A DNA stretch of 64,000 nucleotides from Segnochrobactrum spirostomi (GTDB taxonomy: Bacteria > Pseudomonadota > Alphaproteobacteria > Rhizobiales > Segnochrobactraceae), in assembly GCF_009600605.1 (NCBI RefSeq), contig NZ_VWNA01000002.1:186001-250000 (forward strand). The letters are read 5' to 3'. The notes under the pieces were generated by a model. That model was not told the origin of the DNA. It saw only the letters and a program-made list of their open reading frames with translations, and ran no database searches. Of this stretch, positions 1,418 to 18,750 are shown piece after piece. Within the stretch, counting starts at the first letter, position 1. Every line of letters begins with the position of its first letter. The translations under genes and the position numbers were made by a program.

Positions 1418-2161
1418 ATGGCGAAGATTCTGGAGGGCAAGATCGCCCTCGTCACCGGTGGCGCCCGCGGCGTCGGCTGTGAGGTGGTCCGGCGGCTCGC
1501 CCGCGAGGGCGCCGATGTCGCGTTCCTGTACGGCACGTCTGAAGCCGCGGCGCGCGAGACGGAGAAGGAAGCGGGGGCGCTCGGCGTCCGCGCCAAGGGC
1601 TATCACGCCAACCTGGAAAATCCCGAGACGCTGCCCGACGTGGCGAAGGCGGTGCTCGCCGATTTCGGCCGGATCGACATCCTGGTCAACTGCGCCGGGA
1701 TCTTCACCGTCGGCATGATCGGCGACATCGCGTTCCCCGATTATGAGCGCGCGATGAACGTCAATCTCGACTCGGTCTATTATCTGACGAGCGAAGTCTC
1801 GAAGACGATGCAGCCGGGCAGCCGCATCATCAACATCTCGAGCACGCTCGCGGAGCGGGCCGGCGGCGCGGCGATCGCCGTCTACAACGCGACCAAGGCC
1901 GGGGTGAGCAGCCTCGCGCGGAGCTGGGCCCACGATCTCGGCGCCCGCGGCATCCTCGTCAACGCGATCCAGCCCGGCCACATCAACACCGACATGAACC
2001 CGGACACGACCGACTATCATCACGAGATGGTCAAGCGCATCCCGCTCGCCCGCTATGCCGAGCCCGCGGAGATTGCCGGCGTCGTCGCGTTCCTGGCCGG
2101 ACCGGACGCCGCCTACATCACCGGCGCGACGATCAATGTCGACGGCGGGCTGAACGGCTGA
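1418..2161 (+). CDS. SDR-family NAD(P)-dependent oxidoreductase
   Basis: A classical 247-residue short-chain dehydrogenase/reductase. It has the TGGARGVG nucleotide-binding loop (13-20), an NCAG motif (91-94) in place of NNAG, Ser141/Ser142, and the YNATK catalytic Tyr156-Lys160 pair. It ends with the usual INVDGG strand. The length matches FabG-like enzymes. GGGAGGA is a good ribosome site 5 bp before the ATG. The gene lies 26 bp after the GTPase and just before a 2-oxoacid dehydrogenase operon, so it probably reduces or oxidises a hydroxy/keto intermediate of the same pathway. The substrate is not predictable. Confidence 0.85.
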   Translation: MAKILEGKIALVTGGARGVGCEVVRRLAREGADVAFLYGTSEAAARETEKEAGALGVRAKGYHANLENPETLPDVAKAVLADFGRIDILVNCAGIFTVGMIGDIAFPDYERAMNVNLDSVYYLTSEVSKTMQPGSRIINISSTLAERAGGAAIAVYNATKAGVSSLARSWAHDLGARGILVNAIQPGHINTDMNPDTTDYHHEMVKRIPLARYAEPAEIAGVVAFLAGPDAAYITGATINVDGGLNG

Positions 2162-2252
2162 GCGCCGGATATCCAGAATGAGAATCTTTCCCAGCGTTTG
2201 ACCGGCTTCATTTGGCACTTTGCCGCGAAGCGCCGGTTCGGGAGAAAAACCA

Positions 2253-3284
2253 ATGAATCGAAAGGGCGGCACGACTGCCGTGACCGTGCAGTCGGCCAAT
2301 GACGATATCGGCATCGAGAAGAGACTCGAGCTTTACCGGCTACAAGTCGAAATTCGGGATTGCGAGAAGCGCGCCTATGATCTGTTCATGCAGAACTTGA
2401 TCAAGGGAACGAGCCATTTGTCTTTGGGGCAGGAGGCGATTGCTGCCGCCTTCGGCGTCGCGATGGAGAAGAATGACAAGTCGTTCTGCACCTATCGCGG
2501 CCATGCCCACACGCTGGCGCGCGGCGTCGGCATGGAGAAGATGCTCGGCGAACTGATGCTGCGCGATGTCGGGCTGATGCGCGGCAAAGGCGGCTCGATG
2601 CACCTGACCTCCGTCGAGCACGGTGTCATGGGATCTTACGCCATCATCGGCGCCCATCTCCCGATCGCCTGCGGCTCGGCCTGGCGGGCGCAATATCTCG
2701 GCGAGCCGGACGTCGCGGTCTGCTTCTTCGGCGACGGCACGACGAACATCGGCGCCTTCCACGAGGCGCTCAATTTCGCGGCGATTTGGAAGCTGCCGGT
2801 CGTCTTCGTCTGCGAGAACAATCTCTACATGGAATATACGCCGATCCACGAGGTGATCCCGGTCGAGAACCCGGCTGGCGACCGCGCAGGGGCCTATGGG
2901 CTCGAAAAGATCGTGATCGACGGCAACGATGCCGACGTCGTCTTCCGCACCGCGCGGGCCGCGATCGAGAAGGCGCGCGCCGGCGAGGGCCCGTCGCTCA
3001 TCGAGGCGCTGACCTATCGCCATTCCGGCCATTCGCGCGCCGATCCGGCCAAATATCGCCCGTCGGGCGAGCTCGAAAAATGGCTGGAGCGCGATCCCTT
3101 GAAGATCTACCGCGCGCGGCTCGAAGAGCACGGCGTGGCGGGCGACACGATCGCGGCCATCGAGGCGGAGAGCAAGCGCAAGGTCGACGAGGCGACGGAG
3201 GTCTGCAAGGCCTCGCCGCCGGCGCCGGTCGAGCTCCTGACGACGGACGTCTACGCCGATGGGGGCTGGGCATGGCGGAACTGA
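2253..3284 (+). CDS. Thiamine-dependent 2-oxoacid/acetoin dehydrogenase E1 alpha
   Basis: A 343-residue E1 alpha subunit of the pyruvate/acetoin dehydrogenase type. The thiamine-diphosphate motif starts GDGTTN at residues 160-165 and ends at CENN about 28 residues later. SLGQEA and RGKGGSMH are typical of the family. It forms an alpha2-beta2 E1 with the next gene and decarboxylates a 2-oxoacid or cleaves acetoin onto the lipoyl group of E2. The ATG at 2253 follows CGGGAGAAA; an in-frame codon at 2220 lacks a ribosome site. The 3' end overlaps E1 beta by 13 bp. Whether the substrate is pyruvate, acetoin or a branched oxoacid is open. Confidence 0.88.
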   Translation: MNRKGGTTAVTVQSANDDIGIEKRLELYRLQVEIRDCEKRAYDLFMQNLIKGTSHLSLGQEAIAAAFGVAMEKNDKSFCTYRGHAHTLARGVGMEKMLGELMLRDVGLMRGKGGSMHLTSVEHGVMGSYAIIGAHLPIACGSAWRAQYLGEPDVAVCFFGDGTTNIGAFHEALNFAAIWKLPVVFVCENNLYMEYTPIHEVIPVENPAGDRAGAYGLEKIVIDGNDADVVFRTARAAIEKARAGEGPSLIEALTYRHSGHSRADPAKYRPSGELEKWLERDPLKIYRARLEEHGVAGDTIAAIEAESKRKVDEATEVCKASPPAPVELLTTDVYADGGWAWRN

Positions 3285-4252
3285 GCTATCGCGACGCGGT
3301 GATCCGCGGCATCGCGCAGGAAATGGAGCGCGACGAGCGCGTCGTCATGATCGGCGAGGACATCGCCAAGGCGGGCGGCGTCTTCAAGGCGACCGTCGGT
3401 CTCTATGACCGCTTCGGGCCGCGCCGCGTCCGCGACACCCCGATCTCGGAGCAGGCCATCCTCGGTGCCGCCATGGGCGCGGCGATGACCGGCTTGAGGC
3501 CGATCGCCGAGATCATGTTCTCGGACTTCATCGCGGTCTGCTTCGACTATATCGCCAACGAATTCCCCAAGACCCGCTACATGACCAACGGCCAGATGGG
3601 CTGCCCGCTGGTGGTGCGCACCGGCAACGGCGGCGGCGTCCGCTTCGGTGCCCAGCACTCCCAGTCGGTCGAGAACTGGTCGATGATGATCCCGGGGCTG
3701 AAGGTCGTCGCGCCGTCGTCGCCGGCCGACGTGGTCGGCCTGATGGCCGCCGCCATCCGCGACAACGATCCGGTGATCTTCCATGAGCACAAGGCGCTCT
3801 ACGCCACCAAGGGCGAGGTGCCGGACGGCGAGATCATCGACACCCTCGGGACGGCGAAGATCCTGAAGGCGGGCAGCGATTGCACCATCGTCGCGCTCGC
3901 GATGATGGTGCCGCGCTCGCTCGAGGCGGCGGCGATCCTGGAACGCGACCACGGCATCAAGGCCGAGGTCGTCGACCTGCGCTCGCTGGTGCCGCTCGAC
4001 ACCCGGACGATCCTCGGTTCGGTCGCCAAGACCGGCCGGCTCTTCACCGTCGAGGAAAATCCCCGCCTATGCGGCTGGGGTGCCGAGATCGCCTCGATCG
4101 TCGCCGACGAGGCGTTCTGGGATCTCGACGGACCGATCGTCCGCATCACCACGCCGCACATCCCGCTGCCGGCCGCCGACCATCTCGAAGATCTCGCGAT
4201 CCCCTCGGTGGATCGGATCGTCGCGCGGGTCAGCCGCGTCATGAACGGGTAG
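3272..4252 (+). CDS. Thiamine-dependent 2-oxoacid/acetoin dehydrogenase E1 beta
   Basis: A 326-residue transketolase-like E1 beta subunit. It begins MAELSYRDAVIRGIAQEMER and carries the family's VVMIGEDIAKAGGVF, RVRDTPISEQAILGAAMGAA and NGGGVRFGAQHSQS segments. The start lies inside the E1 alpha gene, giving a 13-bp overlap typical of translational coupling. It is followed 4 bp later by E2. No E3 (dihydrolipoamide dehydrogenase) gene is present nearby, so the complex would have to borrow the housekeeping E3. Confidence 0.88.
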   Translation: MAELSYRDAVIRGIAQEMERDERVVMIGEDIAKAGGVFKATVGLYDRFGPRRVRDTPISEQAILGAAMGAAMTGLRPIAEIMFSDFIAVCFDYIANEFPKTRYMTNGQMGCPLVVRTGNGGGVRFGAQHSQSVENWSMMIPGLKVVAPSSPADVVGLMAAAIRDNDPVIFHEHKALYATKGEVPDGEIIDTLGTAKILKAGSDCTIVALAMMVPRSLEAAAILERDHGIKAEVVDLRSLVPLDTRTILGSVAKTGRLFTVEENPRLCGWGAEIASIVADEAFWDLDGPIVRITTPHIPLPAADHLEDLAIPSVDRIVARVSRVMNG

Positions 4253-4256
4253 GGTC

Positions 4257-5600
4257 ATGGCGGACACCATCATCATGCCGCAGCTCGGCGAGACCGTCGC
4301 CGAAGGCAAAATCCTGACCTGGTTCAAGAAGATCGGCGACGCCGTCGCGCCCGGGGACCGGCTTTTCGAGGTCGAGACCGACAAGGTGACGATCGACGTC
4401 GAGGCGATTGCGAGCGGAACCATCACGGCGATCGCCGTCGGCGACGGTGAGACGGCGACGATCGGCACGGTCGTCGCCGTGCTCGACGGCGCCGTGGCGG
4501 CGCCTGCTGCGGTCGCGCCTCCCGCGGCCGAGCCGGTGGCGAACGAAGCGCCGACCTTGCGCCACGAGCCGGTGCCACCGCCTTCGGTGACGATCCACCC
4601 GGCGGGACCGCTCGATCCGTTCGAGGAGGTTCGCACCCCCGTCGGCCGGTTCGGCAACCGCGACGGCCTCGCGGGGCTGAAGGTGACGCCGCTCGCCCGT
4701 CGGCTGATCGCCCAGAGCGGTGCCGACACGCGGGCGATCGCGGACATCGTGCGGGGCCGCCAGGGCCACCGCGTCGGCCGCGCCGATGTCGAAGCCGTCC
4801 TTGCGACCGCTAAACAGGCCCCTGCGCCGGTGCAGCCGGTGGCACCGGCGCCGCGGCCGCAGGCGCCTACACCGTCGCCGGCCGCCGCGGGCGGGACCGT
4901 GATCCCGCTCAACGCGATCCGCCAGCGCACCGGCGAACGGCTCGCCGAGAACTGGCGGACCATCCCCCACGTCTTCCAGGCGGTCGAGGTCGATTTCACC
5001 CGCATCGACAAGGCGCGGCTCGCGCATCGCGAGGCGTTCAAGGCGGCGACCGGCCTGTCGCTGACCTATCTGCCCTTCATCGCGCGGGCGACGGCGATGG
5101 CGCTCACCGCCTTCCCGCAGGCGAACGCGCGCTTCGAGGCCGGCACGCTTTATGCGAACGCGGACGTCAATCTCGGCATCGCCGTCGACCTCGGCCACAA
5201 CGGTCTCGTCGTCCCGGTGGTGCGTCAAGCCGACGGCATGACCGTCGCAGGGTTGGCCAAGGCGATCGGGCGGCTCGTCCAGAAGGCGCGCGCCGGCAAG
5301 CTCGGCCTCGACGACCTCTCCGGCGGCACCTATTCGATCAGCAACAACGGCGCCTTCGGCACCTTGTTCACGACGCCGATCATCAACGCCCCGCAGGTGG
5401 CGATCCTGTCGACCGACGCCATCCGGCCCCGACCGGCGGTGGTGCGGACCGAGGCCGGCGACGTCATCGTGCCGCGCCTCATGGGCATGGTCGGCCAGAG
5501 CTTCGACCACCGCGCCTTCGACGGCGCCTATTCGGCGGCCTTTCTCAGCCACCTCAAGACGATCCTCGAAGAACGCGACTGGCATGCGGAGCTCGCTTGA
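4257..5600 (+). CDS. Dihydrolipoamide acyltransferase E2
   Basis: A 447-residue E2 with three parts. The N-terminal lipoyl domain has ETDKVTID, lipoylated Lys43. A Pro/Ala-rich linker leads to a peripheral-subunit-binding domain around residues 140-182 (starting KVTPLARRLIAQSG). The C-terminal catalytic acyltransferase domain has the active site HRAFDG (His418, Asp422). It transfers the acyl group from lipoate to CoA. There is one lipoyl domain, as in acetoin and branched-chain complexes. It is the third gene of the E1 alpha-E1 beta-E2 unit. Confidence 0.9.
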   Translation: MADTIIMPQLGETVAEGKILTWFKKIGDAVAPGDRLFEVETDKVTIDVEAIASGTITAIAVGDGETATIGTVVAVLDGAVAAPAAVAPPAAEPVANEAPTLRHEPVPPPSVTIHPAGPLDPFEEVRTPVGRFGNRDGLAGLKVTPLARRLIAQSGADTRAIADIVRGRQGHRVGRADVEAVLATAKQAPAPVQPVAPAPRPQAPTPSPAAAGGTVIPLNAIRQRTGERLAENWRTIPHVFQAVEVDFTRIDKARLAHREAFKAATGLSLTYLPFIARATAMALTAFPQANARFEAGTLYANADVNLGIAVDLGHNGLVVPVVRQADGMTVAGLAKAIGRLVQKARAGKLGLDDLSGGTYSISNNGAFGTLFTTPIINAPQVAILSTDAIRPRPAVVRTEAGDVIVPRLMGMVGQSFDHRAFDGAYSAAFLSHLKTILEERDWHAELA

Positions 5601-5639: not shown

Positions 5640-6893
5640 ATGAAATATAACAGCCCCCATTCGACCGCGTCCTGGGGTACGACCGCCAAGGACTGGGAAC
5701 AGGGCATCGACTATCACCGCCTGTCGAAGGATCGGCTGCGCCGCGCGCAGGAGGCGATCCGTTTTGCCGGGCTCGGCGGCGTGCTCTGCTTCAACTTCGA
5801 CAACATCCGCTATGTGACGTCGACCCACATCGGCGAATGGGCACGCGACAAGTTCTTCCGCTATGCGCTCTGCCCGGCCGAAGGCTCGCCGTTTCTCTGG
5901 GATCCGGCGCCGCCGGCGAAGCGGCTGTCCTCGCCCTGGATCGCGGACAATGTCGCCGCGCCGATCACGACCATGCAGGGCGCCATTCCGCCCGGCATGA
6001 ACGTCGCCCGCGACTTCGCCCGTCAGATCAAGAAGGCCCTCGTCCATTACGGCATCGACAAGGAGCCGCTCGGCATCGACATCATGGAGATCGGGATGCT
6101 CCGGGCACTCGAGGCCGAGGGCATCGAGGTCGTCGATGGTGCCCAGGCGCTGCTCGATGCGCGCGAGATCAAGACCGGGGACGAGATCGAGCTCCTGAAG
6201 ATGGCGGCCGCGATGGTCGATGCGACCTATGTCGACATCGCCCGCGCGATCCGCCCCGGCACCAAGGAGAACGAGCTCGTCGCGATCGCCAACGACCGCC
6301 TGTTCCGCATGGGCTCGGAGCGGGTGGAGTGCGTCAACTCGGTCTCGGGGCGCCGCGGCCGGCCGCATTCCCACACGTTCTCGGACCGCATGATCCAGCC
6401 GGGAGACATGATCTTTCTCGACATCATGCACTCCTTCAACGGCTACCGGACCTGCTATTATCGCACCTTCATCTGCGGCGAGCCGAACAAGCACCAGATC
6501 GACGCCTACGAGACCGCGTCGAAGTGGATCAGCGCCTCGATCGACATGATCCGCCCGGGCGTCACCCCGGACGAGGTCGCCGCGGTGTGGCCGGACGCCC
6601 ACGAGTTCGGTTATCGGGACGAGGAGGAAGCCTTCCTCCTGCAATATGGCCACGGCGTCGGCCTGTCGCTCTGGGAACGGCCGATCTTCTCCAAGCGCTT
6701 CCGCGGCCAGAACACGCCGCTCAAGGAGGGCATGGTGTTCGCCCTCGAAACGTGGAAGGGCTCGGACGACGGGTCGGGCGCCGCGCGCATCGAGGAGGAG
6801 GTCGTGGTGACCAAGGACGGGTGCGAGATCATCACCAACTTCCCGTCCGATCGCCTGATCTCCTGCGGTCTGCCCGGCTGCGAGGTGTTCTGA
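5640..6893 (+). CDS. M24 (creatinase/aminopeptidase P-fold) family protein with altered metal site
   Basis: A 417-residue pita-bread-fold protein. It has a creatinase-like N-terminal domain (about 1-170) and an M24 domain. Of the five usual metal ligands four are present: Asp261 (FLDIM), His338 (GHGVG), Glu370 (ALETW) and Glu385 (RIEEEV). The second Asp of the D-x10-D pair is replaced by Cys272 (GYRTCYYRTF). M24 includes Xaa-Pro peptidases, metal-free creatinase and the DMSP lyase DddP, so a non-peptidase role is possible. The ATG follows GGAGGAA. It lies between E2 and a His-rich GTPase, which may load its metal. Confidence 0.8.
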   Translation: MKYNSPHSTASWGTTAKDWEQGIDYHRLSKDRLRRAQEAIRFAGLGGVLCFNFDNIRYVTSTHIGEWARDKFFRYALCPAEGSPFLWDPAPPAKRLSSPWIADNVAAPITTMQGAIPPGMNVARDFARQIKKALVHYGIDKEPLGIDIMEIGMLRALEAEGIEVVDGAQALLDAREIKTGDEIELLKMAAAMVDATYVDIARAIRPGTKENELVAIANDRLFRMGSERVECVNSVSGRRGRPHSHTFSDRMIQPGDMIFLDIMHSFNGYRTCYYRTFICGEPNKHQIDAYETASKWISASIDMIRPGVTPDEVAAVWPDAHEFGYRDEEEAFLLQYGHGVGLSLWERPIFSKRFRGQNTPLKEGMVFALETWKGSDDGSGAARIEEEVVVTKDGCEIITNFPSDRLISCGLPGCEVF

Positions 6894-6918: not shown

Positions 6919-8088
6919 ATGACAAGTGGGTCCGCGGAGGCGAACGCGAGAATTCCGGTGACGCTCGTCACCGGTTTCCTCGGCAGCGGCAAGACGACGC
7001 TGATCAATGCGGCCCTGAAGGCCCCGGAGCTCGCCGACACGGTCGTCGTCGTCAACGAGTTCGGCGAGGTCGGGCTCGATCATTCGCTCTATTCGCGCTC
7101 GAACGATGCGGTGATCGTGCTCGAGAACGGCTGCCTCTGCTGCACCGTGCGCAGCGATCTCGTCGCGACCCTCAACAGCCTGTTCCACGCCCGGCAGGCG
7201 GGGGAGATCCCCCGCTTCCGGCACATGATCATCGAGACTTCGGGGCTCGCCGAGCCGGGCCCCGTCCTCCAGGCGTTCCTGTCGGAGCCGACCCTCGATG
7301 GGCTCTACCGGGTGGCGCGGGTCGTCACTTTGGTCGACGCGGTCAACTGGCGGGACACGGCGCGGGAGCATGACGAGGCGGTGCGCCAGGTCGCCTTCGC
7401 CGACGAAATCCGCATCACCAAGCTCGACATGGCGCCGGATGGTGCGGACGCGCGCCTGTCGGCCGATCTTCGCCGCATCAATTCGGCCGCCGCGATCGCG
7501 CCGGTCGAACGGACGACGGCCGCGATTGCGGCGCTCCTCTCGACGGACGGCTTCGATCCCGCCGACCCCTCCGCCGACCCGCGGCGCTGGCTCGCCCTGT
7601 CGCATTACGAGGCGCACGACGCGCACGGTCACCATCACGCCTGCGGGCCGGAATGCGACGATCCGGACCATCATCACGACCACGACGATCATCACCATCA
7701 TAACGCCGACCATTTCGCGGCGCGCGGGATCGAGTCCTTCGTGCTTAAGCGGGAGAACCCGCTGTCGCGCGACGAACTGCAGTTTCTGCTCGATGGGATC
7801 GGCCAGAATCTCGGAACCGGGCTGCTCCGCGTCAAAGGGCTCGTCAACGTGGCGGAGGAGCCCGGCCGGCCGGCGGTGATCCAGGGCGCGCAGCATCTCC
7901 TGCACACCATGACCTGGCTCGACCAATGGCCGGACGATGACCACCGCACGCGGATCGTCTTCATCACCCAAGGCATCGCGCGGCAGAGCCTGTCGGAGGT
8001 CATCGAACTCCTCGACCGCATGGCGGCCCGCACCTTCAAGGCGCGCGAGCGCGCCCGCCAAGCGCGGGCCGACCAAGCGGCGTCCTGA
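6919..8088 (+). CDS. COG0523 (CobW-type) GTPase with His-rich metal-binding insert
   Basis: A 389-residue G3E GTPase. Walker A is GFLGSGKT (19-26), CxCC is at 72-75 (NGCLCC), and a TKLD motif serves guanine specificity. A strongly His/Asp-rich insert at about residues 232-262 includes runs such as DHHHDHDDHHHH. Such inserts are typical of zinc or cobalt delivery and storage members. The C-terminal CobW domain is present. It follows the M24 gene by 25 bp on the same strand. It is a paralogue of the GTPase at 306-1391, which lacks the His-rich insert, so the two may serve different metals or clients. Confidence 0.87.
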   Translation: MTSGSAEANARIPVTLVTGFLGSGKTTLINAALKAPELADTVVVVNEFGEVGLDHSLYSRSNDAVIVLENGCLCCTVRSDLVATLNSLFHARQAGEIPRFRHMIIETSGLAEPGPVLQAFLSEPTLDGLYRVARVVTLVDAVNWRDTAREHDEAVRQVAFADEIRITKLDMAPDGADARLSADLRRINSAAAIAPVERTTAAIAALLSTDGFDPADPSADPRRWLALSHYEAHDAHGHHHACGPECDDPDHHHDHDDHHHHNADHFAARGIESFVLKRENPLSRDELQFLLDGIGQNLGTGLLRVKGLVNVAEEPGRPAVIQGAQHLLHTMTWLDQWPDDDHRTRIVFITQGIARQSLSEVIELLDRMAARTFKARERARQARADQAAS

Positions 8089-8112: not shown

Positions 8113-9255
8113 TTACGGTTCGGACGTTCGCCCCGTGACGAGGCCGCAGACGTGTGCCGCAATGGCGAGCGAGGCGGTGAGGCCCGGGGATTCGATGCCG
8201 AGGAGATGGATCAGACCGGGCACGCCGTGGTCGGTCTCGCGCTGGATCAGGAAATCCGGCGCCTCGGTGCCCGGCGGCGCGATCTTCGGGCGGATGCCGC
8301 TATAGGCTGGCTGGAGCCTGTCGGGATCGATCGCCGGCCAGTAGCGGCGGATCGAGCGGACAAACGCCTCCTTGCGGGCCGGGTTCACCCCATAATCGAT
8401 CGCCTCGATCCATTCGACATCCGGGCCGAAGCGGACGCCGCCGGCGAGGTCCAAGGTCAGATGGATGCCGAGCCCGCCCGGCTCCGGCACCGGATAGACC
8501 AGATGGCTGAACCGCGTCGCGCCGGAATAAGCAAAATAGTTGCCCCGCGCGTAGTAGGCCGTCGGCCGGCTTTCGGGCCGCGCGTCCGCGACTGCCCCCG
8601 CGATCTCCGGCGCCGCGAGCCCGGCGGCATTGATGACCCAGCGGCTGGCGATCCGCGCCATCCCGTCGGATTCGATCTCGGTGACGATCCGCCCGCCCTC
8701 CGGCGCGATGCGGAGCGCCCGGCTGTGGAGCGCCAGCGTCGCGCCGGCGGCCGTCGCATCGGCTTCGAGCGCGTCGATCAACGCCTGTGTGTCGACGATC
8801 CCGGTCGAAGGGGAGAGCAGCGCGGCGACGGCGGCGACATCGGGCTCCAGGGCCGCCGCTTCGGCGCCGGAGAGGAAGGCGAGGTCGGTGACGCCGTTCG
8901 CGACGGCGCGCCGGATGAGATGGTCGAGCGTGGCGATCTCGGCCTCGGTGGTCGCGACGATGATCTTGCCGCAGCGGCGGACGGGCACGCCTTTCGCCGC
9001 CGCATAGGCATAGAGCCGGTCGCGCCCCTCGACGCAGAGCCGCGCCTTGAGGCTGTCCTTCGGATAATAGATCCCGGAATGGACGACGCCGCTGTTGCGC
9101 GACGAGGTCGCCGTCCCGAAGCGCGCTTCCTTCTCGACGAGCAGGGTCTCGATCCCGGCAAGAGCGAGGGCCCGCGCGACGGCGAGCCCGACGACCCCGC
9201 CGCCGATCACGACGCATTCGAAATCCCCGGCCACCTCGCGGTCGTCGGCCGTCAT
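8113..9255 (-). CDS. FAD-dependent oxidoreductase, L-2-hydroxyglutarate oxidase (LhgO/L2HGDH)-like
   Basis: A 380-residue DAO-superfamily flavoprotein. It has the N-terminal dinucleotide fold GGGVVGLA (about 18-25), followed by SRNSGVVHSGIYY, which is characteristic of L-2-hydroxyglutarate dehydrogenases/oxidases. The second FAD-binding segment (GIESPGLTASLAIA) is near the C-terminus. It is predicted to oxidise a 2-hydroxy acid to the 2-oxo acid, passing electrons to quinone or O2. GAGGGA precedes the ATG. It is convergent with the GTPase gene and lies 112 bp downstream of the fusion regulator on the same strand. Confidence 0.8.
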   Translation of the reverse strand: MTADDREVAGDFECVVIGGGVVGLAVARALALAGIETLLVEKEARFGTATSSRNSGVVHSGIYYPKDSLKARLCVEGRDRLYAYAAAKGVPVRRCGKIIVATTEAEIATLDHLIRRAVANGVTDLAFLSGAEAAALEPDVAAVAALLSPSTGIVDTQALIDALEADATAAGATLALHSRALRIAPEGGRIVTEIESDGMARIASRWVINAAGLAAPEIAGAVADARPESRPTAYYARGNYFAYSGATRFSHLVYPVPEPGGLGIHLTLDLAGGVRFGPDVEWIEAIDYGVNPARKEAFVRSIRRYWPAIDPDRLQPAYSGIRPKIAPPGTEAPDFLIQRETDHGVPGLIHLLGIESPGLTASLAIAAHVCGLVTGRTSEP

Positions 9256-9367: not shown

Positions 9368-11071
9368 TCAATAATGGCCGGCGGCGCGCATGATCGCGTC
9401 GATACGGGCCTGGGCGTTCTCCAGCGCCTGCCGGTCCGTCACCTCGCCCGAGAGGGCGCGATGGATCTCGGTCCCCAGGGCGAGCTCGATCGCGAGATAT
9501 TCCGGGACCGGCGGCCGCGGCCAGGATTTCAGCATGTTGCGCTTCGCCAGCCGGTCGACGATCGAGACGATCGGCGAGGTCGCCGCCGCCTCCGGGTCGG
9601 CGGAGACGGAGAAGCGCGGCGCGACGGGGAAACCGTTGCGCACGCCCGCCTTCATCGCCTCCGGCGAGGCCATCCAGGCGATCGCCTCGAAGGCGAGTTC
9701 GACCTGTTCCTTCGGCAGGTTGCGCGGGATGCCGAGCAGGAAGCCGCCGATCGGGTTGTTGGACGTGCCGGCAGGTCCGCGCGGCTGCTGCAGATAGGCC
9801 ACCTTGTGGCGCACGACCGAGCCGATGTCGGTCTCGAACCGCGCCGCGCGCACCGTCCAGCAATAGGCCATGGCGGTCGAGCCGTTCAGGAACGCCGTGG
9901 TGCGGCGGTCCCAATCCATGGTGAGGATGTCGGGCGGCGAATATTCGACGAGGCGATGCAGATAATCGAGCACGTTGAAGCCCGCCTCGCACAGCACGTG
10001 CGGCCGGAGCTGCTCGCCGCTCGCCTTGTCCACGGTGAAGAAGGGGCGTGACTTCGGCAGGTTGAGGATCGATTCGCCGCAGCATGCCATCAGGAACATG
10101 AAGGTCGAGGCGACCGGCATGCCCGCGCCGCCGTTCCAGGCGATGCCGTAGAGCCCCCGAGCGGGATTGTGGAAATGCCGCGCGGCCGCGACCGTCTCGT
10201 CGAAGGTGGTGGGGTAGCGGTAGCCCTCGGGCTCGAAGATGTCCTTGCGCGCGGCGAGGAGTTCGATGGTGCAATAGATCGGCACGCCATATTGCTTGCC
10301 GTTCCACGTCCCCATCGACCAGACCGAGGTGTGGAAATCGAGCGGCGAGATGGTGCTGTTGTCGATGAAGTCGTCGAGCGGCAGCAGGACGTCCTTCTTG
10401 ACCGCCTCGCCGAGCCATGGCGCGTTGATCGCGACGATGTCGTAGGCCGATTTCGGCTGCTCGCTGTTCTCGATGACGCGGGCGTGGAGGTCGGGCAGCT
10501 TGCGCAGGTCGAAATTCTTCCGCGACGAGATGTTGTTGCGGAAGTCGGCCCACATGTTCGACATCGCGTGGAAATAATTGTCGTCGTTGAGCAGGAAACG
10601 CAGCTCGCGCTTGCCCGAGAACAGGCTCTCGATGAGCCGCGGCGGCGGGATGATCTGAGCGGCGAAATAGGAGCCGCCGAAATAGAAGGCCTCGTCCTCT
10701 TCTGGGTTCGAGCGCATGCCGAAGGTCTCGGCGAGCAGGGATTTCACGCGCTTGGCGTAGGCGACGAAGGTCTCACCGAGGGCTTCGCTCGGCAGGAGAA
10801 CGAAGGTGCGGCCGCCGTCACGGGCCGGCTTCTTCACGATGTGTCCCGCCGCGATCATCTCGTGGATCCGCCGCATCGCCGTCGCGTAGGGAATCTTCGC
10901 GACCGAGGCGAGCGTCGAGATCGTCACCGGCGTGCCGAGCAGGCTCTGCTTCATCAGATAGAGGATGATGTTCCAGGAGGGATCTTCCTCGGCGATCGGG
11001 ATCATGTCCTGGAAGGGGCTGCGGACGCGCTCCAGGAACGCGATGATCCGCAAGATCTCATGCTCGGTCAT
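9368..11071 (-). CDS. Cytoplasmic fusion regulator: MarR-like winged helix plus family-1 solute-binding domain
   Basis: 567 residues from the ATG at 11071; an upstream in-frame ATG at 11197 would add 42 residues of low-complexity sequence. Residues 1-118 form a winged helix-turn-helix: VTISTLASVAKIPYATAM, then RRIHEMIAAGHIVKK and a wing, DGGRTFVLLPS. Residues of about 150-560 match ABC solute-binding proteins of family 1, with AYDIVAINAPWLGEAVK, WNGKQYGVPIY and a conserved hinge pattern. There is no signal peptide or membrane segment. It is divergent from an ABC importer gene set across 229 bp that holds an inverted repeat. I infer a one-component regulator whose ligand pocket derives from an importer-binding protein. 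Confidence 0.8.
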   Translation of the reverse strand: MTEHEILRIIAFLERVRSPFQDMIPIAEEDPSWNIILYLMKQSLLGTPVTISTLASVAKIPYATAMRRIHEMIAAGHIVKKPARDGGRTFVLLPSEALGETFVAYAKRVKSLLAETFGMRSNPEEDEAFYFGGSYFAAQIIPPPRLIESLFSGKRELRFLLNDDNYFHAMSNMWADFRNNISSRKNFDLRKLPDLHARVIENSEQPKSAYDIVAINAPWLGEAVKKDVLLPLDDFIDNSTISPLDFHTSVWSMGTWNGKQYGVPIYCTIELLAARKDIFEPEGYRYPTTFDETVAAARHFHNPARGLYGIAWNGGAGMPVASTFMFLMACCGESILNLPKSRPFFTVDKASGEQLRPHVLCEAGFNVLDYLHRLVEYSPPDILTMDWDRRTTAFLNGSTAMAYCWTVRAARFETDIGSVVRHKVAYLQQPRGPAGTSNNPIGGFLLGIPRNLPKEQVELAFEAIAWMASPEAMKAGVRNGFPVAPRFSVSADPEAAATSPIVSIVDRLAKRNMLKSWPRPPVPEYLAIELALGTEIHRALSGEVTDRQALENAQARIDAIMRAAGHY

Positions 11072-11246: not shown

Positions 11247-11270
11247 AGAGGTACATAAGAATATACCTCT
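11247..11270. promoter_or_regulatory. Inverted-repeat operator between fusion regulator and ABC importer
   Basis: A perfect inverted repeat, AGAGGTA-N10-TACCTCT, lies in the 229-bp divergent intergenic region. It is 31 bp before the start of the binding-protein gene. This is the position expected for an operator of the divergent winged-helix/solute-binding regulator. Confidence 0.55.
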
Positions 11271-11300: not shown

Positions 11301-12593
11301 ATGTCGAGATCGTTCGGGGCGCTGCTTGGGGCAGCCGCCGCCGCTTTGCTCAGTACCGCGTCCGTGCAAGCCGCGAGCCTGGTGATCTTCGGGCCGAGCA
11401 CATGGGACGCGCTCGCCCCCGGGGCTTCGGAGGAGGTCAACGCGGACGTGCTGGCGAAGCTCAAGGCCGGCTTCATCGCCCAGCATCCCGACGTGACCGA
11501 TGTCACCGTGAACTCGGGCGGCACCATCACCGACGGCCTCAGCCGCCTGCGCAACGCCGTGCTCGCCGGCGACCAGATCGACGTGATCCTCTGCGCCGCG
11601 AACCCCGTCAACACGTCCTATGCCCGGCTGAACCTCATCAGCCCCGTCGACGATCTCGTCGCCTCGCTCGGGGATCGCTTCACCGCCGGCTCGATCTCGA
11701 ACTTCACCGTCGGCGGCAAGGTGTGGGCCGTGCCGGTCTCGGCGGTCAACGTCACCACCTTCTTCTACAACAAGGACATCTTCGCCAAGGCCGGCATCAC
11801 GCCCCCGGCGACTTACGAGGAGTTCGTCGCCGACGTCCCCAAGCTGACCGCGCTCGGCGTCGTCCCGGTGGTGCATCAGGGCAAGAACGCCTGGATGTGG
11901 CCGCTCTATTATATGAGCTCGCTCGCCCAGACGACCGGCGACAAGCAGATGGATTTCGTCCTGGCGACGCTTCAGGGCAAGGCGAAGTTCACCGATCCCG
12001 AGAGCGTCGAGGCCCTCAAGCTTGCCTATGGCTGGGTGAAGGACGGGCTGCTCGATCCGCAATCGAACGAACTCGACGAAGAGGCGATGAAGTCGGTGTT
12101 CTTCTCCGGCCGCGCCGCCGCCTATTTCGGCGGGTCGTGGGACGTCCCGAGCCTGACCCAGAACGCCACCTTCCAGTGGGGCGTGTTCCCGTTCCCGAAA
12201 TATCAGAAGGAACCCGGCAAGCCGGTGGCCTTCGGCGGCGCCGAGAGCGGATTGTGCGTCTCGAGCGCCTCGAAGAATCCCGAGCTCGCCAAGGCCTTCA
12301 TCGCCTATGCGGCGCAGGATGCGCAGGCGAAGATCATGCTCGATCCGATCGCGCCGATCGCGACCTCGCTCAAGGGCGTGCCCGGCGTCGACACGCCGGT
12401 CGCCAAGGAATTGTCGACCGTGCTGCCGGCCTCGAAGTTCCTCGACTGGGTGTGGCCGCGGGAACTGACCGAGGTCATCCAGCGCGAGGTCCAGTCGATG
12501 ATGGGCGGGGCGGAGACGCCCGAGCAGGCGGCGGCGAACATGCAGGCGAAGCTCGATCAGATGGTGGCCGCAGGCTACGTCTACGGCAAGTGA
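11301..12593 (+). CDS. ABC importer periplasmic sugar-binding protein (family 1)
   Basis: A 430-residue exported binding protein. Its Sec signal peptide runs MSRSFGALLGAAAAALLS then a cleavage region at SVQA-AS. The body follows the MalE/UgpB-type family (PF01547), with GGTITDGLSRLRNAVLAGDQ and GGSWDVPSL. It delivers a carbohydrate or nucleoside-like ligand to the permeases encoded immediately downstream. GGGAAT precedes the ATG. Its expression is probably governed by the divergent fusion regulator via the 11247-11270 repeat. The ligand is unknown. Confidence 0.88.
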   Translation: MSRSFGALLGAAAAALLSTASVQAASLVIFGPSTWDALAPGASEEVNADVLAKLKAGFIAQHPDVTDVTVNSGGTITDGLSRLRNAVLAGDQIDVILCAANPVNTSYARLNLISPVDDLVASLGDRFTAGSISNFTVGGKVWAVPVSAVNVTTFFYNKDIFAKAGITPPATYEEFVADVPKLTALGVVPVVHQGKNAWMWPLYYMSSLAQTTGDKQMDFVLATLQGKAKFTDPESVEALKLAYGWVKDGLLDPQSNELDEEAMKSVFFSGRAAAYFGGSWDVPSLTQNATFQWGVFPFPKYQKEPGKPVAFGGAESGLCVSSASKNPELAKAFIAYAAQDAQAKIMLDPIAPIATSLKGVPGVDTPVAKELSTVLPASKFLDWVWPRELTEVIQREVQSMMGGAETPEQAAANMQAKLDQMVAAGYVYGK

Positions 12594-12656
12594 TCGCTTG
12601 CAAGTGATCCCTGCCAAAGTGATCCCTGGGGGGAGTGAGCAGCGCGAGTGAGGGTA

Positions 12657-13532
12657 ATGGATACCAAATATCTGGCGCCCCTCGCGCTGCTCCTTCCCGG
12701 GATGACGCTGCTCGGCGTCTTCATGCTGGTGCCGATCGCCTACGGTCTCTATCTCAGCGTCCACCAGTTCGACGGCATCAATCTCGGCGCCTTCGTCGGG
12801 CTCTCGAACTACCTCTCCGTCCTCTCCGACGCGAGCTTCCTCAGCGCCCTCGGCCACACCGCGGAATTCGCCGCGATCGTCGTGGTGGGCAAGAACGTCG
12901 TCGGCCTTGCGCTTGCGGTGCTCGTCAACATGCCGCTCAAGGGCATGCGGACGGCCCGCACGGTGCTCTTCCTTCCGGTGACGCTCAACATCATCGTCAT
13001 CGGCGCGTTCTGGCAATTCTTCCTCGCCTCGTCGCGCTTCGGCGGTCCGCTGAACCTCTTTCTCGCCTCTGTGGGGTTGGGCCACTGGCAGACGTCGTGG
13101 CTGTCGGCGCCCGGAATCGCGCTCGTCAGCGTCGCGTTCATCGAAATCTGGCGCTGGGCGGGCCTCCACATGCTGATCTTCCTCGCCGGCATGCAGGCGA
13201 TCGAGCCCTCGCTTTACGAGGCCGCGAGGCTCGAGGGGGCCAACGCCTGGCAGCGCTTCCGCGCGATCACGCTGCCGGCGCTGCGGCCGATCCTGTTCGT
13301 CTCGACGCTCCTCGCCCTCATGGGGGCGTTCGTGCGCAGCTTCGACATCGTCTGGGTGCTGACCCGCGCCGGCTTCGGCACCGACGTGGTGGTGACCCGC
13401 CTCTACAACGAGGCCTTCCAGTTCGGCCGTTTCGATCGCGCGTCCGCCATGGGCTACGTCATCTTCGTGATCATCGCGGTGATCAGCTTCATCTATGTCC
13501 GCGCGGCGAAATTCGGACGCGACGATGCCTAG
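12657..13532 (+). CDS. ABC sugar transporter permease, MalF/UgpA type
   Basis: A 291-residue inner-membrane permease with six predicted hydrophobic segments. The EAA cytoplasmic loop (EAARLEGANAWQRFRAITLP) contacts the ATPase. The ATG at 12657 follows GTGAGGG; a GTG nine bases upstream is an alternative. It overlaps the next permease gene by 8 bp. Confidence 0.88.
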   Translation: MDTKYLAPLALLLPGMTLLGVFMLVPIAYGLYLSVHQFDGINLGAFVGLSNYLSVLSDASFLSALGHTAEFAAIVVVGKNVVGLALAVLVNMPLKGMRTARTVLFLPVTLNIIVIGAFWQFFLASSRFGGPLNLFLASVGLGHWQTSWLSAPGIALVSVAFIEIWRWAGLHMLIFLAGMQAIEPSLYEAARLEGANAWQRFRAITLPALRPILFVSTLLALMGAFVRSFDIVWVLTRAGFGTDVVVTRLYNEAFQFGRFDRASAMGYVIFVIIAVISFIYVRAAKFGRDDA

Positions 13533-14370
13533 TCTGCGCCGTGCCTTTCGCCTCAATCCGGTCGGGACCTCGCTCGCCTATGTCGGCCTCGCCTTCGCCA
13601 TCGTTCAGGCGATGGGGCCGGTGGTGTGGCTCATCACCGGCTCGTTGAAATCGCGGGGCGAATTCTACGCCGACCCGTGGAGCCTGCCGAAGGCCTGGCT
13701 GTTCCGGAACTATGCCGACGCCTTCGTCACCGCCCGCGTCGGCGACTATGTGCTGAACAGCGCCATCGTCGTGGTGCTCGGTCTGGCGATCCTGCTCGTC
13801 TGCGCGGCGACCACCGCCTACGCGCTGGCGCGCTTCGCCTTTCCGGGGCGCGACGCGGTGCTGGCGGTGATCCTGATGACGATGATGGTGCCGCCGGACG
13901 TGCTCACGGTGCCGTTGTTCCTGACGCTGCGCTCGCTCGGGCTGCTCGGCACCTTTCTCGGCCTCGCCTTCATCTACGCCGTCGGCGGGTTCGGCATGTC
14001 CGTGTTCCTGCTGCGCGGCTATTTCGCCGGTGTGCCGGCCGAGCTCGAGGAAGCGGCGCGGCTCGACGGGGCAGGGGCGCTGCGCATCCTCTGGCACGTC
14101 ATCCTGCCGATGAGCCTCCCGGGCTTCCTCAGCGTGGTGATCATCCAGGCGATCTCGATGTGGAACGACCTCTACCTCGCCTTCGTCTTCATCCGCGATC
14201 CCAAGATGGCGACCGTCCCGCTCGGCCTCCTCAATTTCTTCCGGCGGGATTCCGTCAATTGGCCGCTCTTGCTTGCGGCGCTCGCGATCCTGACCGTTCC
14301 CATCCTCGTCCTCTACGCCGCCGCCCAGCGCCGCTTCATCGAGGGCTTCACCAGCGGAGCGGTGAAATGA
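13525..14370 (+). CDS. ABC sugar transporter permease, MalG/UgpE type
   Basis: A 281-residue permease with six hydrophobic segments and an EAA loop (ELEEAARLDGAGALRILWHV). The chosen ATG at 13525 overlaps the end of the first permease by 8 bp, and its stop overlaps the next start (ATGA). No ATP-binding subunit gene occurs anywhere in this operon, so the pair must use an ATPase encoded elsewhere. Confidence 0.88.
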   Translation: MPSLRRAFRLNPVGTSLAYVGLAFAIVQAMGPVVWLITGSLKSRGEFYADPWSLPKAWLFRNYADAFVTARVGDYVLNSAIVVVLGLAILLVCAATTAYALARFAFPGRDAVLAVILMTMMVPPDVLTVPLFLTLRSLGLLGTFLGLAFIYAVGGFGMSVFLLRGYFAGVPAELEEAARLDGAGALRILWHVILPMSLPGFLSVVIIQAISMWNDLYLAFVFIRDPKMATVPLGLLNFFRRDSVNWPLLLAALAILTVPILVLYAAAQRRFIEGFTSGAVK

Positions 14371-15293
14371 CGGCGCCGATCCTCGTCCTCTCCAACGTCA
14401 TCATCGACGACCTGTGGCTCGCCGACGGCACCCATCTGCCGAACACCCTCGGGGGCGCGGCGACCTATGCCGCCGCCGCGGCCCGGCTGTGGTGGGACGA
14501 GGTCGCCGTGGTCGCCGGCGTCGGGGACGATTTCGACACCGTGACGGCGGGCCGGTTCCGCACCTTCGGGCTGCGTGGCGAGGGGCACCTGCGCCGCAGC
14601 CCGCACACCATCCAATCCCGGCTCGTCTACCGGTCCGACGGCAGCCGCACCGAGGTTCCGGCCTACGGCGCAGATCACTTCGCGCGCCTCCAGATCATCC
14701 CCGATGACATCCCGGCGGCGCTGCGCCCCGCGGCCGCGTCCTACGTCTTCCGCGACCTCGACGCGGTCTTCTGGGAGAGCCTGCGGCGGGTCAGGGGCGA
14801 GCTCGGCCTCGTCCTCTGGGAGCTGCACGACGACGGCATCGCCGGCCGCTGGGCGGACGTCGCGGCTCTGATGCCGCTCGTCGATCTCTTCTCGCTCAAT
14901 CTCCAGGAGGCGCGCGCCTTGTTCGGCGACGGCTCCCCCTCTCGGGTGTGCGACGCCGTCCTCGAGGCCGGTGCCGCCGCCGTGGTGCTCAGGATGGGCG
15001 CCGACGGTGCGCTGGTGGCGACCCCGGATCGCCGGTTCCGGGTCGTCCCGCCGCCGAGCCCGGTCGTCGACGTCACCGGCGGCGGCAATGCGTTCTGCGG
15101 CGGCTTCCTGGCCGGTTGGCTGCTGCGACCGGGCGAGGCCGACTTCGCGGCGCGCTGCGCCGCGGCATCCGCCGCCCACGCCCTCGGCCAGTTCGGCCCC
15201 GCCGATCCGCTCGATCGCGAACAGGCGCGCGTCTGGGCCGAGACAACCGGCATTCTCACTTTGACCGAAGGTATCCATGAGCCAGTACGCTGA
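14367..15293 (+). CDS. PfkB-family carbohydrate kinase-like protein (catalytic Asp replaced by Asn)
   Basis: 308 residues of the ribokinase/PfkB fold. It has the N-terminal substrate loop GGAATYAAAAARLWW and the C-terminal signature DVTGGGNAFCGGF (235-247). Ribokinases have GAGD here, with the Asp as catalytic base; this protein has Asn241. A GGGN motif also occurs in the MAK32-like branch of the family, so this may be a separate lineage rather than a damaged kinase. The start overlaps the permease stop (ATGA) and the end overlaps the SIS gene by 17 bp, giving tight coupling. Predicted role: phosphorylation or binding of the imported sugar. Confidence 0.75.
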   Translation: MTAPILVLSNVIIDDLWLADGTHLPNTLGGAATYAAAAARLWWDEVAVVAGVGDDFDTVTAGRFRTFGLRGEGHLRRSPHTIQSRLVYRSDGSRTEVPAYGADHFARLQIIPDDIPAALRPAAASYVFRDLDAVFWESLRRVRGELGLVLWELHDDGIAGRWADVAALMPLVDLFSLNLQEARALFGDGSPSRVCDAVLEAGAAAVVLRMGADGALVATPDRRFRVVPPPSPVVDVTGGGNAFCGGFLAGWLLRPGEADFAARCAAASAAHALGQFGPADPLDREQARVWAETTGILTLTEGIHEPVR

Positions 15294-16404
15294 CTTCGTC
15301 GCCCAGATCGACAGCCTGCCCGAGCTCGTGCGAACCGAGGCGCGGCGGATCGACGACCGCATGCGGCTCCTGCTCAAGACGCCGGAGATCTACGGCATCC
15401 GTCAGGTCGTTCTGGTCGGCTCGGGAGATTCCTACTTTGCGGCGCAGGCCGCCGTCCCCGCGATCCGGGCGTGGACGGGCTTGCCGGTCGTCGCAATGCT
15501 GGCGATGGAGGCGGCGCGTTATGTCGATGCGGGCGTCGCTCCGCTCGGGGGGCAGACACGCGGCCTCCTCGTCGTCGCCATCTCGAACTCCGGCGAGGCG
15601 GCGCGGGTGGTGGAGGCGACGCAACGCCTGCGGGCGCTCGGCGCGCTCACCCTCGCCATCACGGCGGCGCCGGACAGCCGTCTCGGCCGCAGCGCCGAAC
15701 GGGTTCTCGACATCACCGTGCCGGGCGCGGCGCCGGCGCCGGGCACCCGCAGCTACGTCGCGTCGATGCTCGCGGCCTACTCGGTCGGGCTGCGCCTCGC
15801 CGAGGTGCGCCTCGCCGTCACCATGGACGAGGCGAATGCGCTGCGCGGCGAGATCGCCGGCTTGAGCGACGCGCTCGCCACGGCCGCGCAGGTCTCCGCC
15901 GGACCGATCCGCGACGTGGTCGATCGCTGGCACGGCTTTGCGAGCGTCGACGTGCTGGGCAGCGGCCCGGCGCTCGCGAGCGCCGGCTATACGGCCGCCA
16001 AGCTGGTCGAGGCCGCCGGCCTCCACGCGACCGCCCAGGACGCCGAGGAATTCCACCACCTCAATTATTTCGTGGCCGATCTCGACCACGTGCCGGCCGT
16101 CGCCTTCGCCGCCGGGGCCGCGCGCGCGGCGAGCCGCACGCGGGAACTCGTCGGTACGCTCGAGGGCCTCGGTCGGCCGGCCCTGATCGTCACGGATCAG
16201 GCCGAGTGGCCTCCTTACGGCGTCCAGATCCGGTTGCCCGAGGTGCGCGAGTGGTTCGCACCGCTCGTCCATGCGGTGCCGGCCGCGCACCTCGCCGCGG
16301 CTTGGGCCGAGGCGATCGGCGCGATCCATTATCGCGGCCACACCGGCCGCTGGGGCCGTTCGCAGGGGGCGAACCTCGTGCGCAACAGCGCCCTCGAAGT
16401 CTGA
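15277..16404 (+). CDS. SIS-domain sugar-phosphate isomerase/deaminase (GlmS/AgaS/FrlB-like)
   Basis: A 375-residue cytoplasmic protein with two SIS (sugar isomerase) folds. The first has VLVGSGDSYFAAQA and ISNSGEAARVVEA, typical phosphosugar-binding loops. The second (about residues 215-330) has SGPALASAGYTAAKLVEAAG and a DAEEFHHLNYF segment as in GlmS-type active sites. It lacks the glutaminase domain of GlmS. In context it would isomerise or deaminate the product of the PfkB-like kinase. Confidence 0.8.
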   Translation: MSQYADFVAQIDSLPELVRTEARRIDDRMRLLLKTPEIYGIRQVVLVGSGDSYFAAQAAVPAIRAWTGLPVVAMLAMEAARYVDAGVAPLGGQTRGLLVVAISNSGEAARVVEATQRLRALGALTLAITAAPDSRLGRSAERVLDITVPGAAPAPGTRSYVASMLAAYSVGLRLAEVRLAVTMDEANALRGEIAGLSDALATAAQVSAGPIRDVVDRWHGFASVDVLGSGPALASAGYTAAKLVEAAGLHATAQDAEEFHHLNYFVADLDHVPAVAFAAGAARAASRTRELVGTLEGLGRPALIVTDQAEWPPYGVQIRLPEVREWFAPLVHAVPAAHLAAAWAEAIGAIHYRGHTGRWGRSQGANLVRNSALEV

Positions 16405-16414
16405 GGAGACGGTC

Positions 16415-16819
16415 TTGCTGCAATCTTTCCCGCTCGCCACCGATCGCAACGGGTTGTTCGACGTCACGGAGGCCGTCGCCGAGGCGGTCGGCCGGACGGG
16501 GGTCACCGACGGTCTGGTCCTCGTTTCGGTGCCCCATTCGACGGCGAGCGTCACCGTCGTCTCGCCCTGGGACGTGCTCGGCCTCGAGGATGTCCACGAC
16601 GAGATCGAGCGCCTCGTGCCGACGCGCATCAACTTCAAGCACCAATACGATACGCCGCAGGACGCCGCCGGCCACGTCAAGGCGGCGATCGTCGGCCACT
16701 CGCGCACCTTCTTCATCGAGGGCGGCAAGATCGGCCTCGGGCATTCGCAGAAGATCTATTTCTGGGAGTTCGACGGCCCGCGCAACCGCACCGTCGAGGT
16801 CAAGGTGATCGGCCGATGA
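16415..16819 (+). CDS. YjbQ/UPF0047 family protein
   Basis: 134 residues, the normal size for this family. It has the conserved PHSTASVTV and GHSRTFFIEG histidine segments and a C-terminal SQKIYFWEFDGPRNR strand. Some members show thiamine-phosphate-synthase-like activity in vivo, but the true role is unsettled. The TTG start at 16415 is chosen because GAGGAG lies just upstream and no ATG or GTG fits the family N-terminus. Its stop overlaps the start of the phosphorylase gene. Confidence 0.75.
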   Translation: MLQSFPLATDRNGLFDVTEAVAEAVGRTGVTDGLVLVSVPHSTASVTVVSPWDVLGLEDVHDEIERLVPTRINFKHQYDTPQDAAGHVKAAIVGHSRTFFIEGGKIGLGHSQKIYFWEFDGPRNRTVEVKVIGR

Positions 16820-17726
16820 CGAAGGATATCCCGGCGGTCCAACGCGAGCTCTGGGAGACCTACAAATACCGGGACAATGTCCCGCTCGACGGCCTCGCCA
16901 TCGCCGGCCGGCCCGCGCTGACCGGCATCGACCCGACGAAGGTCGGCGATTATGTCCTGATCTTCGTGCGCGATCCCTTGTGCGCCTACGACGACGACCG
17001 GCGACCCAGCTCGCCGCCCGCCTCGACGATCCCGAGCTCGCCGGGCGGACCGGCATGTTCACGAGCTGGACCGGGACCTACAAGGGCGCCCGCATCACCG
17101 CCGTCAGCGGTGGCTCCGGCTCTCCCGAGGCGGAGCTCTGCATGGTCGAATTTCTCGAGCATACGGACGCCACGACCTTTCTCCGCGTCGGCGGCTCGGG
17201 CGGGACCCACGAGGCGGTGCGGCCGGGCGATCTCGTCATCGCCAAGGGCATCGTGCGCGACGAGGGCCTCAGCGCCGCCTATGTCGGCGGTGGCTGGCCC
17301 GCGGTCTGCGATCCGGAGGTGGTCATGGCGCTGAGCGAGGCCGCGCACCGGCTCGGCGTGCCGTACCATGTTGGGCTGACGCGCTCCGTCGATTCCGATT
17401 TCGTGCAGGGCGGTCGCCCTTCGGTGCGGGGCTATCTCCGCCCGCATCAGACCGAGGTGGTCGACGATTGTCGGCGCTTCGGCATCCTCAACAGCGATCG
17501 CGAGGCGGCGGCGATCGTCACTTTGGCGACCCTGTTCGGTCGGCGCGGCGGCTCGGTCTGCTCGGTCGCCGACAACATCGCCACGGGCGAGCCGTTCGTC
17601 GCCGGCGCCGGGCATGCGGCCGCAATCGCCGTTGCCCTCGAAGGGGTCGCCGTGCTCGCCGGCATGGACCGCGCGAAGGCCCGGCAGCAGGCGACGCGCT
17701 GGCTGCCGCATATGGGCCTGGAATGA
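16816..17726 (+). pseudogene. Nucleoside phosphorylase (uridine/purine type), split by a frameshift
   Basis: The first frame, from the ATG at 16816, gives an N-terminus ending VLIFVRDPLCAYDDD. It then turns into nonsense after about base 16995. The remaining family sequence continues in another frame to 17726, through RLDDPELAGRTGMFTSW, GSGSPEAELCMVEFLEHTDA and VADNIATGE. The join needs a -1 (or +2) shift near the GAC repeat at about 16988-17000. With the shift repaired the protein would be about 303 residues, normal for this family, which converts nucleoside and phosphate to base and (deoxy)ribose-1-phosphate. Either the gene is inactivated or the base call is wrong. It ends the ABC/kinase/isomerase operon and suggests a nucleoside-like substrate. 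Confidence 0.75.
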
Positions 17727-18673: not shown

Positions 18674-18750
18674 CTCATTGTGCAATCGCGAAGATCCGGG
18701 GACCTCGACGCGTTTCGAGGTGGCGCGCCCGGCCCCAGACGGAGACGGTG

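What the first reader, a model, noticed from the sequence alone, without database searches (positions are those of the whole stretch)
9368..11071. Regulator built from a winged helix and an importer-type solute-binding domain
The gene divergent from an ABC importer encodes a MarR-like DNA-binding head joined to a full family-1 solute-binding fold, without any signal peptide. LacI-type regulators use a different (type I) periplasmic-binding fold, so a cytosolic type II fold as sensor is unusual. Such a protein could sense the same ligand that the divergent binding protein imports, forming a self-consistent uptake switch. I cannot name a characterised relative.
Basis: partly seen in the sequence, partly recalled or inferred. 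Interest (0 to 1): 0.78.

Follow-up and report, generated by a model that had tools for sequence, protein, structure and literature searches.

The report
Importer-receptor regulator with MarR head

Summary
In detail: window 9368-11071 (minus, 567 aa) is a MarR-type winged helix (residues ~31-95) joined to a family-1 solute-binding fold (~160-560) without a recognisable signal peptide. It belongs to a conserved family (33 full-length rows in 31 of 397 genomes of the order; 32 plasmid records, 26 named 'extracellular solute-binding protein'). The sensor tree favours one origin next to secreted importer receptors.

The proposed switch with the divergent importer is not supported. That operon's PNP gene accompanies none of the 40 other family loci labelled. 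The operon and its palindrome (11247-11270) also occur in a genome without a full-length family member.

Instead, many relatives carry RTCCANNNTGGAY, often paired at 21 bp, at the head of linked importer operons. The window's genome has exactly one perfect ATCCANNNTGGAT. It lies 184 bp before an 11-gene run (ribose-type importer, amidohydrolase, CobW, SDR, E1/E2, M24, CobW) that ends at 8088, one gene from the regulator. Most of the window's closest relatives show no such site in the DNA fetched.

Best reading: a cytosolic one-component regulator of that operon, ligand unidentified. The layout parallels SgrR but matches no SgrR-type Pfam model: new variant of a known kind.

The parts
9368..11071 (-). 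REG, the regulator: MarR-type head plus family-1 solute-binding sensor, 567 aa
10787..10981 (-). Winged helix-turn-helix, residues 31-95 (family-conserved T50, L54, A65, R67, G76)
9392..10594 (-). Solute-binding sensor domain, residues 160-560
1..295 (+). End of the amidohydrolase gene of the predicted target operon, which starts before the window (L093 10178 on; window base 1 = L093 16002)
306..1391 (+). CobW-type GTPase, predicted target operon
1418..2161 (+). SDR dehydrogenase, predicted target operon
2220..3284 (+). E1 alpha (TPP dehydrogenase), predicted target operon; true start may lie further in
3272..4252 (+). E1 beta, predicted target operon
4257..5600 (+). E2 (lipoyl + acyltransferase), predicted target operon
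5640..6893 (+). M24 peptidase-family enzyme, predicted target operon
6919..8088 (+). CobW-type GTPase, last gene of the predicted target operon
8113..9255 (-). FAD-dependent oxidoreductase (DAO) between operon and REG
11247..11270 (.). Palindrome AGAGGTA-N10-TACCTCT: not REG's motif; probable operator of the divergent operon
11301..17726 (+). Divergent operon, probably not REG's target: CUT1 receptor, two permeases, PfkB, SIS, UPF0047, PNP
18654..18675 (+). Second genomic place of AGGT-N12-ACCTCT, between the GntR/UTRA gene (17771-18592, -) and the next gene

Best explanation
REG is a cytosolic one-component transcription regulator. Its sensor descends from a secreted importer receptor that lost its leader and gained a MarR-type DNA-binding head. 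As a dimer it binds RTCCANNNTGGAY at the head of a linked importer/catabolic operon. In the window's genome this is the 11-gene run of CUT2 importer, amidohydrolase, CobW, SDR, E1/E2, M24 and CobW that starts about 5.8 kb before the window and ends at 8088. A sugar- or polyol-like substrate, or an intermediate made from it, closes the sensor lobes and changes DNA binding. Shown: domains, family, shared motif and its places. Inferred: that REG is what binds the motif, dimerisation, cytosolic location, ligand class, and sign of control (repressor more likely than activator).
For: Conserved two-domain family. Sensor tree: 36 regulators need one origin (80/88), nearest row a receptor with a signal peptide (99/98). 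Context: CUT2 parts in 32 of 41 labelled loci, M24 or E1-alpha in 22 of 41. Motif: in 17 REG-upstream regions 13 have a perfect ATCCANNNTGGAT (16 sites; 200 shuffles mean 0.01, largest 1); 11 of 17 hold a 21-bp spaced pair. Six of the 17 regions were not among those where I first saw it; 5 of these 6 have a perfect site. Own genome: the single perfect match in 5,399,732 bases is 184 bp before the CUT2 receptor gene. Perfect RTCCANNNTGGAY at importer heads in 12 of 28 further loci.
Against: No binding or expression data. The loose form RTCCANNNTGGAY was widened after seeing variants, and it also occurs 2-21 times per genome in 19 family genomes (control 0-5; list cut). Of the 28 further loci 15 have no perfect loose site, including L044-L050, L092 and L001-L003, the window's closest relatives; in several of them the importer head was not in the DNA held. 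L049 and L092, where it was, have only relaxed sites. Of three control palindromes of other letters, two were rarer but one (CATCANNNTGATG) was commoner than the motif at one mismatch (91 against 50). The own-genome site is single, not paired, and there is none beside REG. Related genomes are not independent.
Confidence: 0.75

Rival explanations
1. One reading: REG controls the divergent CUT1 importer through the 11247-11270 repeat and senses that importer's ligand.
For: Divergent arrangement and a perfect palindrome between the genes. Ten of 41 family loci, the window included, have some CUT1 SBP_bac_1 receptor nearby.
Against: The operon and palindrome are kept in G292 without a full-length REG; the motif has only two places, both in that operon's locus; no strict or relaxed family motif anywhere in the window; poor similarity of sensor and receptor.
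Confidence: 0.08
2. REG is a regulator, but the RTCCANNNTGGAY palindrome belongs to another factor of the same gene clusters.
For: The motif is linked to the clusters and is not proven to be bound by REG; several loci with REG lack it.
Against: It lies next to REG or at the head of its linked operon in clusters of two different gene contents, and REG is what the 41 loci have in common by construction; no other regulator family was seen to recur in the labelled neighbourhoods, though unlabelled genes were not all identified.
Confidence: 0.12
3. REG is an exported or inactive binding protein with a chance N-terminal extension, not a regulator.
For: Records name it so: 26 of 32 'extracellular solute-binding protein', 1 'periplasmic component'. 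MarR_2 is below the Pfam cut-off in the window protein.
Against: Conserved head residues across 31 members, winged-helix model, low N-terminal hydrophobicity in 36 members and no room for a leader in 6.
Confidence: 0.03

Closest known systems
SgrR / DsvR (HTH + SBP_bac_5 regulators)
   Same: N-terminal HTH and C-terminal solute-binding domain in one cytosolic regulator (PMC13060122, passages)
   Different: Different families at both ends: MarR-type head and SBP_bac_1 here; neither SgrR_N nor SBP_bac_5 appears among Pfam matches up to E 1
LysR-type regulators
   Same: Winged helix plus a type II periplasmic-binding sensor fold (PMC5882156, passages)
   Different: No LysR Pfam model matched; the sensor here is close to full-size sugar receptors
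MarR family
   Same: Winged-helix fold and profile matches
   Different: MarR proteins are about 140-150 residues and sense ligands at the dimer interface (recalled); here a separate 400-residue sensor follows, and the window protein scores below the Pfam cut-off
Family-1 solute-binding proteins (SBP_bac_1; PDB 5iai, 4rya, 1eu8)
   Same: Sensor domain is homologous over nearly its whole length
   Different: No signal peptide and a fused DNA-binding head

Membership tests
SgrR | SgrR-type HTH (SgrR_N) at the N-terminus | tested here: not met
   Only SBP_bac_1, SBP_bac_8 and MarR_2 at E <= 1
SgrR | SBP_bac_5 solute-binding domain | tested here: not met
LysR | LysR HTH and substrate-binding Pfam models | tested here: not met
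MarR | Winged helix of MarR type | tested here: met
   window protein itself 20.1 bits against cut-off 27
MarR | Ligand pocket at the dimer interface of a single-domain protein | tested here: not met
   A separate 400-residue sensor follows the head; dimer interface itself not testable
Transport SBP family 1 | SBP_bac_1 fold | tested here: met
   73.6 bits, cut-off 26
Transport SBP family 1 | Signal peptide / export | tested here: not met
   Hydrophobicity and in-frame stops; no predictor or localisation data
One-component regulator | Binds a specific operator | not testable with these tools
   Conserved candidate operator found; binding needs an experiment
One-component regulator | Ligand binding by the sensor domain | not testable with these tools
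   Conserved sensor positions only

The most novel reading that the evidence does not exclude
A secreted sugar-importer receptor was kept inside the cell once, fused to a MarR head and became a family of regulators found in Alphaproteobacteria and at least one other class. It was then rewired to importers whose own receptor has the other (type I) fold, so that the cell recognises related compounds with two different receptor folds, one outside and one on the DNA. It has gone unremarked because records name it an extracellular binding protein.
Probability: 0.6. Interest if true: 0.68.

Novelty: new variant of a known kind. Interest (0 to 1): 0.55.

Why it matters
It would be a second, independent type of HTH-plus-importer-receptor regulator beside SgrR, with a predicted operator that can be tested at once. 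It points to an annotation error (27 of 32 plasmid records name it an extracellular or periplasmic binding protein, none a regulator). It links a poorly understood catabolic cluster (CUT2 importer, M24 enzyme, E1/E2 complex) to its likely regulator, and so to a way of finding the substrate. L066, where a family regulator and the closest secreted receptor are neighbours, may show how a receptor turns into a regulator.

Tried and rejected
Divergent-importer switch: rejected on context, on G292 and on the two-place motif; that motif was worked out from these very sites, so its rarity, not its shape, is the evidence. As a standard HutC-type GntR site 11247-11270 does not fit: GT and AC are 12 nt apart, usually 4 nt (PMC4494728, passages); so giving it to the local GntR/UTRA gene is inference, and the G292 homologue of that gene (56%) has one TGA in its match. 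On the minus strand 11247-11270 also scans as terminator-like. No sigma-70-like promoter was found at either site. Viral contigs: no stretch matched. My first gene caller mislabelled neighbours and missed REG in two loci; cluster c4 was taken for receptors until Pfam showed M24. L004 was dropped as a copy of L044. Tree warnings: long branches (L066_REG, L066_SBP, window_SBP and others) may be misplaced. Literature: searches bore on the family (53 on the gene cluster, 93 on LysR); I saw listings only, capped at 10-20 of up to 383 papers, of an open-licence library, and none of the listed titles describes a MarR/SBP_bac_1 regulator. PMC1899371 (SgrR) is not held.

Full report
WHAT IS THERE. The gene at 11071..9368 (-) encodes 567 residues without a stop. 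Residues ~160-560 are a family-1 solute-binding protein (SBP_bac_1 73.6 bits; 31-row profile against PDB 5iai, E 2.6e-58). The head is a MarR-type winged helix: weak in Pfam for this one protein (20.1 bits, cut-off 27), clearer in the family (MarR_2 in 11 of 16 heads, MarR in 4 of 16; best PDB hit 4mnu), and in the predicted fold (mean pLDDT 81.6; Foldseek). I had no signal-peptide predictor; by hydrophobicity 36 family members (0.03-1.54, mean 0.92) differ from four receptors (1.95-2.15), and 6 of 36 have an in-frame stop 2-13 codons before the start.

A CONSERVED FAMILY. Of 397 genomes of the order 52 had a match at E <= 1e-25 (three candidates scored per genome); 33 rows in 31 genomes reach from the head to the end, 33-77% identical (own genome 100%); the other rows lack the head. 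In 398 genomes across the phylum 6 (own included) had full-length matches at E <= 1e-60: own, one of the same order, three of one other family of the class, one of another class. The own genome has one full-length copy. 32 plasmid records (Rhizobium, Sinorhizobium, Agrobacterium, Shinella, Phaeobacter, Tritonibacter, Skermanella and others) cover at least 80% of the query; 26 are named 'extracellular solute-binding protein', 1 'ABC-type sugar transport system, periplasmic component', 3 have no feature there and 2 no annotation. No NCBIfam model reaches its cut-off.

ORIGIN OF THE SENSOR. In a tree of 58 rows the 36 regulators fall together (80/88; one change in 75% of bootstrap trees), so one origin is favoured, not proven. 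The nearest other row is L066_SBP (99/98), a receptor with a leader, encoded just after a family regulator and before CUT1 permeases, 38-40% identical to its best regulator matches. Next come 18 receptors whose N-termini look like leaders by eye. The window's own divergent receptor is far away. The program warns of long branches, including L066_REG and L066_SBP.

GENE CONTEXT. I labelled neighbours in 41 loci by similarity to Pfam-scanned representatives. CUT2 (ribose-type) importer parts are in 32 of 41 and a type I receptor in 30; M24 or E1-alpha in 22; a CUT1 receptor in 10 and a CUT1 permease in 11 (window included); no labelled importer in 4; PNP in 1, the window. For the window only its first 24 kb was labelled; its CUT2 genes lie before the window. 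Stretches differ in length and related genomes are not independent. First type, Phaeobacter plasmid pP92_e: REG, SDR, M24 (Xaa-Pro peptidase), E1-alpha, E1-beta, lipoyl protein, aldehyde dehydrogenase, E2, lpdA; divergent: receptor, SDR, two permeases, ATPase, oxidoreductase, ThuA. Second type, Agrobacterium pAtCFBP6626a: REG, sugar isomerase (APE2), CUT1 receptor, two permeases, zinc dehydrogenase, ATPase. The window holds, left of REG, CobW, SDR, E1-alpha, E1-beta, E2, M24, CobW and, on the other strand, DAO.

THE OPERATOR. A palindrome repeats upstream of REG in the first type. Of 17 such regions 13 have a perfect ATCCANNNTGGAT (16 sites) and 14 one with at most one mismatch (24 sites); 200 dinucleotide shuffles give means of 0.01 and 0.34. 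Eleven regions hold two sites (up to 2 mismatches) exactly 21 bp apart. I saw the motif by eye in 11 of the regions; of the other 6 (L055, L060, L083-L086) 5 have a perfect site. In 28 further loci, RTCCANNNTGGAY is perfect at an importer-operon head in 12: L051, L057, L062, L068-L074, L090, own genome. Under the strict letters only L091 and the own genome are perfect; L057, L062, L069-L071 and L090 have one mismatch, the rest two by their printed letters. L091's site is before another gene next to REG. Fifteen have none: L044-L050, L092, L001-L003, L064, L066, L075, L087. L049 and L092 have a relaxed RTYCANNNTGRAY in the importer gap (background 0.1 per kb). L073, L074 and L091 also have a loose match elsewhere. 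Genome-wide the loose form occurs 2-21 times per genome in 19 family genomes (reversed control 0-5), so it is not unique to the cluster. In one search the motif with up to one mismatch occurred 50 times in 802,992 bases, two control palindromes 1 and 3 times, a third 91 times.

THE OWN GENOME. ATCCANNNTGGAT occurs once without mismatch in 5,399,732 bases, 24 times with up to one mismatch (reversed control 4). The perfect site, C2:179981-179993, is about 20 bases after the stop of a Gfo/Idh/MocA gene and 184 bp before a type I receptor gene. A co-directional run follows: receptor, permease, 833-aa ATPase-permease fusion, amidohydrolase, CobW, SDR, E1-alpha, E1-beta, E2, M24, CobW, ending at window 8088. 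The window itself has no strict or relaxed site. So the predicted target starts outside the window and REG lies one gene (DAO) beyond its end.

11247-11270 is the only perfect match to its own letters in the genome. AGGT-N12-ACCTCT has two places, this one and 18654-18675, next to the GntR/UTRA gene of the same locus. In G292 the divergent operon (receptor 72%, permeases, PfkB, SIS, PNP) and the palindrome with two mismatches are present, a GntR homologue (56%, one TGA in the match) lies about 7 kb away, and none of 27 scored candidates is a full-length REG. The repeat therefore belongs to that operon's own control; GntR/UTRA is my guess.

MECHANISM. REG probably dimerises through the helices that flank the winged helix, as MarR proteins do (recalled), binds the palindrome, and is switched when its lobes close on a sugar- or polyol-like compound. 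The ligand and the sign of control are open.

KNOWN OR NEW. HTH plus solute-binding domain is known from SgrR and DsvR (PMC13060122, passages), type II folds as sensors from LysR (PMC5882156, passages). REG matches neither family's Pfam models. The papers listed (capped listings, open-licence library) include none on this combination. I call it a new variant of a known kind.

Noticed in passing
L093 12389-14890 (3.6 to 1.1 kb before window base 1) and L044 747-3260: CUT2 ATPase (two ABC_tran stretches) and a BPD_transp_2 permease fused in one protein of 833-837 aa.
   Followed up: no
11247-11270 and 18654-18675: AGGT-N12-ACCTCT has only these two places in the 5.4-Mb genome: a local two-site motif of the CUT1/PfkB/SIS/PNP locus, conserved upstream of the receptor in G292.
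   Followed up: partly
L011 1432-2205 (-), own genome: A response regulator whose output winged helix resembles REG's head (33% over residues 29-95, E 5.2e-5).
   Followed up: no
306-1391 and 6919-8088 (+): Two CobW-type GTPase genes within the same predicted operon as E1/E2 and M24.
   Followed up: no
L066 7955-9697 and 9911-11173 (+): A family regulator followed by the secreted receptor closest to the family's sensors, then CUT1 permeases.
   Followed up: partly
20520-22586 (+): GAF + sigma-54 activator + Fis-type HTH regulator near the divergent operon; its target was not examined.
   Followed up: no
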